A program made the translations under genes and the position numbers. Source: Bacillota bacterium (GTDB lineage Bacteria > Bacillota > Clostridia > Caldicoprobacterales > Xylanivirgaceae). Taken from it: a DNA stretch of 64,000 nt. The stretch is taken from assembly GCA_023621995.1 (NCBI GenBank), contig JAMOAB010000060.1:1-64000 (forward strand). The letters are read 5' to 3'. Below the pieces are notes generated by a model. That model saw only the letters and a program-made list of their open reading frames with translations, did not search any database and was not told the DNA's origin. Below are positions 53,952-58,123 of the stretch, piece by piece. How positions within the stretch are numbered: the first letter of the stretch is position 1; each line of letters begins with the position of its first letter.

Positions 53952-54947
53952 ATGATAAGAGAAGATATGGAACGTTTAGAAGAGAGAACTCTATCGGTCC
54001 GTGCCCAACTTAGTAATAACACTAGAGGAAGGATTTATCCGCAAGATAGATGTTCCATTCGAACTGAATATCAGCGAGATAGGGATAGGATAATACATTG
54101 TAAATCCTTTAGAAGGTTAAAACACAAGACACAGGTATTTATTGCACCTGAAGGCGATCACTATAGGACAAGGCTTACACATACTCTCGAAGTATCCCAA
54201 GTTGCAAGGACAATAGCCCGTGCTCTAAGACTAAATGAGGACTTGACAGAGGCAATAGCGCTAGGGCACGATCTTGGGCATACACCATTTGGCCATTCAG
54301 GAGAAAAAATATTAAATGCTATTAAGACAGACGGCTTTAAGCATAATGAGCATAGTCTCCGTGTAGTAGATATATTAGAAGGTGAAGGTGGTTTAAATCT
54401 TACATGGGAAACAAGGGATGGTATATTGAATCACCCAAAGGAGAGTACACCATGCACACTTGAAGGACAAGTAGTAAACATAAGTGATAGAATAGCCTAT
54501 ATAAATCATGATATCGACGATGCCATTAGGGCAGGCATCATAGACGCAACTGACCTACCTAAGGATTGTATAGATATATTAGGAGATACCCATGGAAGGC
54601 GTATCCACAATATGGTAGTAGATGTGGTGTCTAGTAGCACAGGTAAGGAATACATTCAGATGAGTAGAGAAGTTGAAGAGGCAACTGAAAAATTACGTTC
54701 ATTTATGTTTGATAGAGTTTATATGAATGAAAAGTCTAAAAGGGAAGAAAAAAAGGCCATGCATATAATAGAACAGCTATTTAACTATTTTATAAGACAT
54801 ATTGACGAACTGCCTGATGAATATTTAAATTTCATAGAGAGCTATGGTGTAGAACAGGTAGTATGTGACTATGTTGCAGGTATGACTGATAGGTATGCCA
54901 TTAAATTATATGAGAGTATATTTGTCCCAGGTTTTCATATATTATAG
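53952..54947 (+). CDS. dgt: Deoxyguanosinetriphosphate triphosphohydrolase-like protein
   Basis: The 331-residue HD-superfamily protein has the dNTPase N-terminal segment [21 protein letters not shown], then [15 protein letters not shown] and the HD pair in [14 protein letters not shown] near residue 100. [13 protein letters not shown] lies near 180. It hydrolyses dNTPs to nucleoside and triphosphate. It commonly precedes dnaG in Clostridia. TAGGTGATAT precedes the ATG. Confidence 0.92.
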
Positions 54948-54974
54948 AGTGATATAAGTAAAATTAATAAAAAA

Positions 54975-55004
54975 GAAGGAAAATAAGGGGTATATGTCGA
55001 ATAA
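54975..55004 (+). promoter_or_regulatory. Sigma-H-like promoter 1 upstream of dnaG-rpoD
   Basis: GAAGGAAAA (54975-54983), a 12-bp spacer and GTCGAATAA (54996-55004) match the sigma-H pattern RnAGGAwWW / RnnGAATww at every defined position. The transcript would have a leader of about 220 nt. Confidence 0.55.
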
Positions 55005-55170
55005 TATATAACTTGTACGCCATTTTATTATATATCTTATTCAAGTCCCGTATAAAAAATAGGAATCTATGGGATTGAGTAAATTTATCGATAACTCCAG
55101 GTGATTTATTTATAATATGGGTGTTAGTTATCTATTGAGATAATTTGTTTTAAATAGCCAGTGCTAAAAA

Positions 55171-55199
55171 GAAGGAAGATTGAACAATTTGTCGAATAG
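55171..55199 (+). promoter_or_regulatory. Sigma-H-like promoter 2 with overlapping Spo0A box, upstream of dnaG-rpoD
   Basis: GAAGGAAGA (55171-55179), an 11-bp spacer and GTCGAATAG (55191-55199) match the sigma-H pattern with a mismatch in the outer W positions. TTTGTCGAA at 55188-55196 fits the Spo0A box TTTGTCRAA exactly and covers the -10. Transcription would start about 20-25 nt before dnaG. Confidence 0.55.
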
Positions 55200-55230
55200 T
55201 ATATATTACGGGTAAAAGTCAGGTGAGTGT

Positions 55231-57054
55231 ATGGCTAGATTTCTTCCTGAAGATTTTATAGAAGAGGTTCGGATGCAAAACGATATTGTAGACGTCATAT
55301 CCGAATACCTAGTACTAAAACCTAGTGGAAAGGGTTTTTTTGCCCTATGTCCTTTTCATAGCGAAAAGACTGCATCTTTCCATGTATATCCAGAAAAACA
55401 AATATATCATTGCTTTGGATGTGGTGTTGGAGGCAATGTTTTTTCATTTATAATGGCAATAGAAAATATTGGTTTTGTAGATGCAGTTAAGATGTTGGCA
55501 GAGCGAGTAGGTATGCACCTGCCTGAAACCTACGATTCTGACCAATATGAAGCGATAAAATCTCGTAATGAGGTCATATATGCAATTAATACCCAGGCAG
55601 CAAGGTATTACCATAATATGCTCATATCTAAGAAGGGAGAATGGGCCCTTAAATATCTCTTGGATAGAGGATTAGATATGCGAACTATAAGAATATTTGG
55701 CTTAGGGTTTGCACCAGATGGTTGGAATAATATAAGGGACTATCTCCTTGAGAAGGGCTTTGAAGAGAAACTGCTCATAGAGTCTGGGATTATTGTAGCA
55801 CGTAAGGGGAGCGTATACGATCGTTTTAGAAATCGTATCATGTTTCCCATAATAAATCAAAGTGGTTATGTAGTAGGGTTTGGCGGTAGGGTCATGGATG
55901 ATAGCGTACCTAAATACTTAAATACGTCTGAAAGCCCTGTCTTCAATAAGAGTAATGTCTTATTTGGACTTAATCTTGCTAAAAAAGAGCGGCCCCTTAC
56001 CCATATTATAATAGTAGAAGGATATATGGATGTCATTACTCTTTATAGATATGGCTATCATAATGCAGTAGCCTCATTGGGTACAGCTTTGACGCCGGAG
56101 CAGGCAGGCCTCATAAGAAGATATGCCGGAGAGGCAATTATAGCATATGACGGGGATACAGCTGGGCAACAGGCGGCCCTAAGAGCTATTGGCGTATTAA
56201 CAAAGGCTGGTTGTGATGTGAAAGTTGCAAAATTTCCTAAGGGCTCAGATCCAGATGATATTCTAAGGGAATATGGTAAGAGTTATTTTGATAAACTACT
56301 TAAAGAGGCAGTATCGTCTATAGATTTCAAATTAGATATACTACAGAGAGATTATGACCTCACTGATGAAGAGGAAAGGGTAAAGTATGCTATAGAGGCA
56401 GCTAGAATATTGTCTGAAGTGGAGAACATTCTAGAAAGGGATGTGCATATAAGGCGTTTAGAGGATATTACTGGCTTTAGGGCTGAACTTATATATAGAC
56501 AGATAGATATAATAAAGTCTAAAAACAGGGATATAAGTGTAAAAAGGACTAATCTTGGCAATAATAGGCATACTAGTTTAAATATTAGCAATAAATCAAA
56601 ATCCTCTCATATAATAGCTGAAAGAGGTCTTATAAACCTTATGGCACAGAATGAGAAAATAGCAAGAGAGGTAATGGAAAGATTAAAAGACTATAGCTTT
56701 CAACTGGATATACATCAAGAAATTGTCAGCATTATAGACAGAATATTACAAGACAATAAAGAGTTGAATATAGCACAGGTATTTAACTATGTGCACGATG
56801 CTGAAAAAATTCAGCAAATGATAGAGATATTTAGCGTGCAAAATGAGTATGATAATATGGGTAAGTATATAGATGATTGCATAAAAACTTTGAAAGAATA
56901 TAAATTAAAAGAAGATTGGAAGAATATCCAAGCTAAGCTTGCTGATATGGAGAAGAGTACAACATACGATATAGAAGAACATCGACAGCTATTAGAAAAG
57001 GCCCAAGAACTGAATAGGCAAATTTTAGTCCTTGAAAGGGAAAGGAGGGAATAG
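55231..57054 (+). CDS. dnaG: DNA primase
   Basis: The 607-residue primase has the CHC2 zinc-binding domain ([13 protein letters not shown] at residue 41 and [15 protein letters not shown] near 60). The Toprim catalytic core has [14 protein letters not shown] near 263 and [15 protein letters not shown] near 307. A C-terminal DnaB-interaction domain follows. It makes RNA primers at the fork. CAGGTGAG precedes the ATG. rpoD follows 4 nt later, so the two form the classical macromolecular-synthesis operon; rpsU is encoded elsewhere (41623). Confidence 0.96.
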
Positions 57055-57058
57055 CCCT

Positions 57059-58123
57059 GTGAATAACGGAGAAATGAAAAAAAATAAAGTGAAAGAACTT
57101 ATTGAAAAGGGAAAACAAAAGGGCGTATTGACATATAAAGAGATCATGGACATGCTAGAGGACATAGACTTAGAGCCCGATCAAATAGAAAAGATATATG
57201 AAGCGTTAGAGGCACTTGACATAGATGTTATTGATGACGGTGCTTTAGAAGAAGAGGATGATGATAAAGATGATGTGGAGATACCTGATGGGGTAAGTGT
57301 AGATGATCCCGTTAGAATGTATTTAAAGGAAATTGGTAAAGTACCACTGCTTACAGCAGAAGAAGAGGTGGAGCTAGCAAAGAGAATGGAGCAAGGCGAT
57401 GAAGAGGCCAAAAAACAGCTTATAGAGGCAAACTTAAGGCTAGTTGTGAGTATTGCTAAGAGATATGTGGGCAGAGGTATGTTATTCTTAGATTTGATAC
57501 AAGAAGGTAATCTAGGGCTTATAAAGGCAGTAGAAAAGTTTGACTATAGAAAGGGCTATAAGTTTAGCACATATGCTACATGGTGGATACGGCAAGCCAT
57601 AACTAGAGCAATAGCTGATCAGGCAAGGACCATACGTATTCCTGTTCATATGGTTGAAACCATAAATAAAATGGTAAGGGTATCAAGGCAGCTAGTGCAG
57701 GAGAAGGGACGGGATCCATTGCCTGAAGAGATTGCAGCAGAGATGGGTATATCCGAGGAAAAGGTGAGGGAAATTATGAAAATAGCTCAAGATCCTGTAT
57801 CTTTAGAGACACCCATTGGAGAAGAAGAAGATAGCCATTTGGGAGACTTTATACCAGATGAAGAGGCACTAGCTCCGGCAGACGCAGCTGCATATATCCT
57901 TTTAAAGGAACAACTGGTAGATGTATTAGATACACTTACACCTAGGGAAGAGAAAGTTTTAAGACTTCGCTTTGGTCTTGATGATGGTAGAGCTAGAACA
58001 TTGGAAGAGGTAGGGAAAGAATTTGATGTTACACGTGAGCGTATAAGGCAGATAGAGGCAAAGGCCTTAAGAAAGCTAAGACATCCTAGCCGAAGCAAAA
58101 AATTAAAAGATTATCTTGATTAA
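57059..58123 (+). CDS. rpoD: RNA polymerase primary sigma factor SigA/RpoD
   Basis: The 354-residue sigma-70 has region 1.1, an acidic stretch (EEEDDDKDD near 62), region 1.2 [16 protein letters not shown], region 2 with [17 protein letters not shown] near 173, and region 3. Region 4 has [17 protein letters not shown] and [17 protein letters not shown]. It directs housekeeping transcription. The start is GTG 57059, 9 nt after AAGGAGGG; ATG 57074 after GGAGAA is an alternative. It is downstream of dnaG and possibly of two sigma-H-like promoters. Confidence 0.96.

What the first reader, a model, noticed from the sequence alone, without database searches (positions are those of the whole stretch)
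54975..55199. Two tandem sigma-H-like promoters, one overlapping a perfect Spo0A box, upstream of dnaG-rpoD
GAAGGAAAA-N12-GTCGAATAA (54975-55004) fits the sigma-H consensus throughout, and GAAGGAAGA-N11-GTCGAATAG (55171-55199) nearly so. TTTGTCGAA at 55188-55196 matches the Spo0A box and covers the second -10. In Bacillus the sigA operon has a sigma-H promoter. A doubled, possibly Spo0A-occluded version would tie primase and the housekeeping sigma factor to sporulation entry in a Clostridia-type genome.
Basis: partly seen in the sequence, partly recalled or inferred. Interest (0 to 1): 0.62.

Follow-up and report, generated by a model that had tools for sequence, protein, structure and literature searches.

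The report
Tandem sporulation-type promoters before dnaG–rpoD
Two real, evolutionarily conserved sigma-H promoters stand in front of the genes for DNA primase and the housekeeping sigma factor, and in most clostridial relatives their core also matches the binding site of the sporulation master switch Spo0A; this is the clostridial form of a known Bacillus arrangement rather than a new kind of system.

Summary
Both elements score far above chance with an independent C. difficile sigma-H matrix: rank 4 and rank 19 in 450 kb of the own genome. A same-strand AGG-N-TGnCGAA element lies upstream of dnaG in all 30 loci first fetched, and in 41 of 80 class-wide upstreams (1 in the reversed control, 0 on the opposite strand). 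Sigma-H promoter identity is therefore well supported.

The Spo0A-box reading is plausible but unproved. For it: the three Spo0A-contact bases are invariant in 45/45 dnaG elements even where the T of the sigma-H -10 (GAAT) is lost. spo0A carries the same fused element; spoIIA and often divIC do not. In C. difficile, sigma-H promoters with this core bind Spo0A in vitro. Against it: TGTCGAATA is a common sigma-H -10 in this order; one family without a detected Spo0A keeps it; and in B. subtilis the equivalent overlapping box (spo0A 0A4) has almost no effect.

Sigma-H control of the primase–sigA operon, even from two promoters, and Spo0A repression of dnaG are already reported in B. subtilis. Verdict: real, conserved, a variant of a known kind; occlusion is untested.

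The parts
53952..54947 (+). dgt, dGTP triphosphohydrolase (gene upstream)
   Evidence: ORF; NCBIfam NF002327 above cut-off
54975..54983 (+). distal element, -35 (GAAGGAAAA)
   Evidence: direct; PWM rank 4 in 450 kb for the whole element
54995..55003 (+). distal element, -10 TGTCGAATA (GAAT 54999-55002) with core 0A box TGTCGAA 54995-55001
   Evidence: TGTCGAAT kept in 20 of 21 distal elements, the other CGTCGAAT
55171..55179 (+). proximal element, -35 (GAAGGAAGA)
   Evidence: direct; PWM rank 19 in 450 kb
55188..55198 (+). proximal element, TTTGTCGAATA: -10 (GAAT 55194-55197) overlapped by 0A box TTTGTCGAA 55188-55196
   Evidence: Spo0A-contact bases invariant in 24 of 24 proximal elements
55221..55227 (+). 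probable dnaG ribosome-binding site (AGGTGAG)
   Evidence: sequence; kept in the same-genus relative
55231..57054 (+). dnaG, DNA primase
   Evidence: TIGR01391 above cut-off
57032..58123 (+). rpoD, housekeeping sigma factor (TTG start as listed; an in-frame ATG lies at 57074)
   Evidence: ORF; NF006666 RpoD above cut-off

Best explanation
The dgt-dnaG gap holds two tandem sigma-H promoters that drive dnaG-rpoD when sigma-H rises at the transition from growth to sporulation. The -10 of each is fused with a Spo0A box core (TGTCGAA), as in the sigma-H promoter of spo0A itself. Most likely Spo0A~P binds there and tunes, probably damps, sigma-H transcription of primase and RpoD as sporulation proceeds. 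Supported by sequence evidence: the two promoters, their conservation, and the extra conservation of the box bases. Inferred: Spo0A binding at this site (my estimate about 0.65). Speculative: direction and size of the Spo0A effect (about 0.4 for damping).
For: PWM ranks 4 and 19 of 450 kb. Element upstream of dnaG in all 30 first loci and 41 of 80 class-wide, 1 reversed, 0 opposite strand. sigH and spo0A present in the genome. dnaG: G2, C4, G5 of the box invariant in 45 of 45 elements while the T of GAAT is lost in 15 of 24 proximal ones. spo0A promoters carry TGnCGAAT in 21 of 22 loci with a site, spoIIAA promoters never. divIC keeps the sigma-H site but the C is A in 7 of 27, at least 3 changes on a tree. 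In C. difficile, sigma-H promoters of spo0A, lplA and ssuA hold TGTCGAA at the -10 (PMC7438776) and those fragments bind Spo0A-DBD, while spoVG does not (PMC3485338). Molle 2003 is cited for repression of dnaG transcription in B. subtilis (PMC12090719).
Against: No transcript or binding data for this organism. TGTCGAATA is a common sigma-H -10 in this order (134 sites against 11 in the control). Family f39 has no Spo0A at E<=1e-50 but 3 of 4 genomes keep the element. Association with Spo0A presence is p 0.003 by genome, only 0.06 by family. The overlapping 0A4 box of B. subtilis spo0A Ps has almost no effect. spoIIAA also keeps a fixed letter (A), so promoter-specific constancy need not mean Spo0A.
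Confidence: 0.6

Rival explanations
1. Two plain sigma-H promoters. TGTC before GAAT is simply one accepted form of the clostridial sigma-H -10, so the Spo0A box is only an overlap of two consensus sequences and Spo0A does nothing here.
For: TGTCGAATA precedes many sigma-H-type genes in the order (divIC, flgB, degS); strictly one strand and fixed spacing; family f39 keeps it without a detected Spo0A; B. subtilis 0A4 nearly inert.
Against: C invariant at dnaG and spo0A but variable at divIC and absent at spoIIAA; box bases outlast the T of GAAT in proximal elements; Spo0A-DBD binds such promoters in C. difficile.
Confidence: 0.33
2. The proximal element is, at least in families with TGGCGAAC, no longer a sigma-H promoter but an operator for Spo0A or another regulator, or a promoter of another sigma factor; the window copy would be a transitional form.
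For: GAAC, GAAG or GAAA replaces GAAT in 15 of 24 proximal elements with an AT-rich run following; also TGGCGAAC in family f22 and TGGCGAAA in f32.
Against: The GAAGGAA -35 and its spacing stay fixed in the same elements; the window copy has an intact GAAT.
Confidence: 0.04
3. Chance resemblance in AT-rich intergenic DNA.
For: Loose patterns (RNAGGA..NNGAATA) are barely enriched genome-wide, 186 against 152 in the control.
Against: Conservation across many families, strand specificity and PWM ranks.
Confidence: 0.02

Closest known systems
Sigma-H promoters of the Bacillus subtilis sigA (yqxD-dnaG-sigA) operon
   Same: Sigma-H-type promoters serve primase and housekeeping sigma; a second sigma-H promoter regulating dnaE (= dnaG) is named in the title of Qi and Doi 1990 (reference list of PMC2824700). 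Named Bacilli loci have AGGA-N-GAAT upstream of dnaG.
   Different: Here the upstream gene is dgt, both elements lie in the gap before dnaG, and both -10s contain TGTCGAA; most Bacilli sites lack that core.
Ps (sigma-H) promoter of B. subtilis spo0A with the overlapping 0A4 box
   Same: Spo0A box overlapping a sigma-H -10, footprinted (PMC12090719).
   Different: Target is dnaG-rpoD, not spo0A; here only sequence evidence; in B. subtilis the box was nearly without effect.
C. difficile sigma-H promoters of spo0A, lplA and ssuA
   Same: AGGA and TGTCGAA at the -10, fragments bound by Spo0A-DBD in vitro (the two papers combined by me).
   Different: Different genes; the overlap was not presented as one element in the passages read.
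C. difficile sigA2 (CD1498) sigma-H promoter
   Same: Sigma-H control of a housekeeping sigma gene (PMC7438776).
   Different: In C. difficile the dnaG promoter was assigned to SigA; the sigma-H promoter serves a second, separate sigA.

Membership tests
Sigma-H-dependent promoter | -35 RnAGGA and -10 GAAT at 17-18 nt spacing | tested here: met
   distal 18, proximal 17; PWM ranks 4 and 19
Sigma-H-dependent promoter | sigH gene in the genome | tested here: met
   TIGR02859 above cut-off at C28:163030-163623
Sigma-H-dependent promoter | conserved on the coding strand upstream of orthologous genes | tested here: met
   30 of 30 first loci; 41 of 80 class-wide, 0 on the opposite strand
Sigma-H-dependent promoter | transcription requires sigma-H | not testable with these tools
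   no transcript data
Spo0A (0A) box | TGTCGAA core with flanking T (TTTGTCGAA) | tested here: met
   proximal full match; distal core only
Spo0A (0A) box | contact bases G2, C4, G5 under constraint beyond that of the sigma-H -10 | tested here: met
   45 of 45 at dnaG; divIC C4 varies 20 C to 7 A; spoIIAA never C
Spo0A (0A) box | found only where Spo0A exists | tested here: inconclusive
   35 of 56 Spo0A+ against 6 of 24 Spo0A- genomes; family f39 an exception
Spo0A (0A) box | bound by Spo0A~P | not testable with these tools
   needs EMSA or footprint
sigA-operon sigma-H promoter (Bacillus type) | sigma-H site upstream of dnaG in the dnaG-rpoD operon | tested here: met
   same place in window and in named Bacilli loci

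The most novel reading that the evidence does not exclude
An old, Clostridia-wide composite switch in which sigma-H turns dnaG-rpoD on and Spo0A~P turns it off through the same bases, giving a pulse of primase and housekeeping sigma only at sporulation entry; in some families the proximal copy (GGCGAAC) may have become mainly a Spo0A operator.
Probability: 0.22. Interest if true: 0.6.

Novelty: new variant of a known kind. Interest (0 to 1): 0.4.

Why it matters
It shows that sigma-H control of the primase–housekeeping sigma operon, known from Bacillus, extends across many Clostridia, usually with a -10 that doubles as a Spo0A box core. If Spo0A acts there, replication capacity and the supply of the growth sigma factor are tied directly to the sporulation decision. 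The divIC and spoIIA comparisons also give a way to ask from sequence alone which sigma-H promoters are under extra constraint from Spo0A.

Tried and rejected
Rfam search of 54800-55400: nothing, so no known RNA element. Sigma-70 and terminator scans: counts near the shuffle mean. Loose sigma-H patterns are useless genome-wide (186 against 152; AGGA..TGnCGAA 33 against 26). Reversed patterns are an imperfect control: reversing TGTCGAA turns CG into GC, which is commoner, so they tend to overstate chance. In G000 and G001 the divIC sigma-H site is about 225-245 bp upstream and may belong to another gene. LexA considered and rejected: no CGAAC-N4-GTTCG seen in the gap (by eye). Qi and Doi 1990 and Molle 2003 could not be read; they are cited through other papers.

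Full report
What is there. The window is part of a 3.08 Mb, 175-contig genome of an uncultured Clostridia-type organism; a close relative is the MAG 'Firmicutes bacterium UBA3920'. Gene order is ppdK - dgt - dnaG - rpoD. The 283-bp dgt-dnaG gap holds the two elements exactly as described. The proximal -10 (GAAT, 55194-55197) is 33 bp from the dnaG ATG; the distal one is 228 bp away. The distal element also contains the core 0A box.

Chance. I built a sigma-H matrix only from C. difficile promoters (Table 3 of PMC7438776) and scanned 450 kb of the own genome on both strands. The distal element ranks 4th (no site as good in reversed or Markov-simulated sequence) and the proximal 19th (2 reversed, 2.7 simulated at that score). 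The strict form RNAGGA..TGTCGAATA occurs 5 times in the whole genome against 0 in the reversed control. Over the 30 genomes of the order it occurs 134 times against 11 (sums of the table).

Conservation. All 30 dnaG loci first fetched, from 7 families (27 of the loci in the own order), have the element upstream of dnaG on the coding strand, often twice. The close relative UBA3920 has the proximal copy in a long conserved block and, by eye, a variant distal copy (GAAGGG...TGTCGAAAT), while the DNA between has diverged. In 80 further genomes of the class, 41 have it on the sense strand, 1 in the reversed control and 0 on the opposite strand. Several of those genomes also have two sigma-H-like sites in tandem before dnaG. 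In G036, where dnaG lacks it, a copy lies upstream of dgt (L327). In named Bacilli loci a sigma-H-like AGGA-N-GAAT lies upstream of dnaG, mostly without the TGnCGAA core.

Sigma-H or Spo0A? Most of TGTCGAATA is also ordinary clostridial sigma-H -10 (TGTAGAATA dominates in C. difficile and in the list), so the diagnostic letter is the C. At dnaG it is invariant in 45 of 45 elements, as are the other two Spo0A-contact bases (contacts from PMC3485338), although the T of GAAT is lost in 15 of 24 proximal elements. At spo0A, TGnCGAAT is present in 21 of 22 loci with a site and the remaining one keeps the C; at spoIIAA it never occurs. At divIC the sigma-H site persists, but the letter is C in 20 and A in 7 loci, with at least 3 changes on a DnaG tree. 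This points to an added constraint at dnaG and spo0A, for which Spo0A is the natural candidate. In C. difficile three sigma-H promoters with TGTCGAA at the -10 (spo0A, lplA, ssuA) lie on fragments that bind Spo0A-DBD, and spoVG without it does not (combining PMC7438776 and PMC3485338; my inference).

Limits. Family f39 keeps the element without a detected Spo0A; my cut-off was E<=1e-50, so a divergent Spo0A could be missed. The Spo0A-presence association is p 0.003 by genome but 0.06 by family, and losing Spo0A may go with losing sigma-H targets. In B. subtilis, where the same overlap exists at spo0A Ps, reporter data and modelling found the box almost without effect, and mutating it kills the promoter (PMC12090719). 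So 'occluded' is a hypothesis.

Context. Recurrent genes behind the fused element in this order are dnaG, spo0A, degS, flgB, divIC, ftsK, a NlpC/P60-G5-LysM protein and chemoreceptors (flgB, ftsK and the chemoreceptors were named by inspection only): a transition-state gene set, as expected for sigma-H.

Verdict. The sigma-H reading is well supported, the Spo0A-box reading plausible, occlusion untested. Kind: a variant of the known Bacillus sigA-operon sigma-H promoters, fused with the 0A-box overlap known from spo0A.

Noticed in passing
L244, L277, L281, L284, L286, L306 (genomes G004, G007, G022, G009; also contig ends in G016): A multi-copy DDE transposase gene (DUF4277 / DDE_Tnp_1) carries the same sigma-H/0A-box-like promoter, AAAGGATTTTTGnATTTTTTGTCGAATA, 36 bp before the ATG in most copies: an insertion element that may be switched on at the transition to sporulation.
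   Followed up: partly
families f4 and f22, e.g. L014, L017, L026, L403: The proximal dnaG element has become TTTGGCGAACATATA: box bases and -35 kept, T of the sigma-H -10 replaced by C. Whether it is still a promoter is unexplained.
   Followed up: partly
own genome G000:C38:82198 (upstream of spo0A), C38:21675 (degS), C162:30472 (flgB), C37:73768 (sigma-70 region 4 / HARE-HTH protein): Other sites of the same fused type in the own genome; the region-4 protein of unknown role is 10 kb beyond the window.
   Followed up: partly
own genome G000:C38:81372-82154 and G000:C44:5441-6193: Two Spo0A-family proteins above the TIGR02875 cut-off, as in most genomes of the order.
   Followed up: no
window 55088-55116: TCGATA-17-TATAAT, a possible sigma-A promoter between the two sigma-H elements; conservation not checked.
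   Followed up: no
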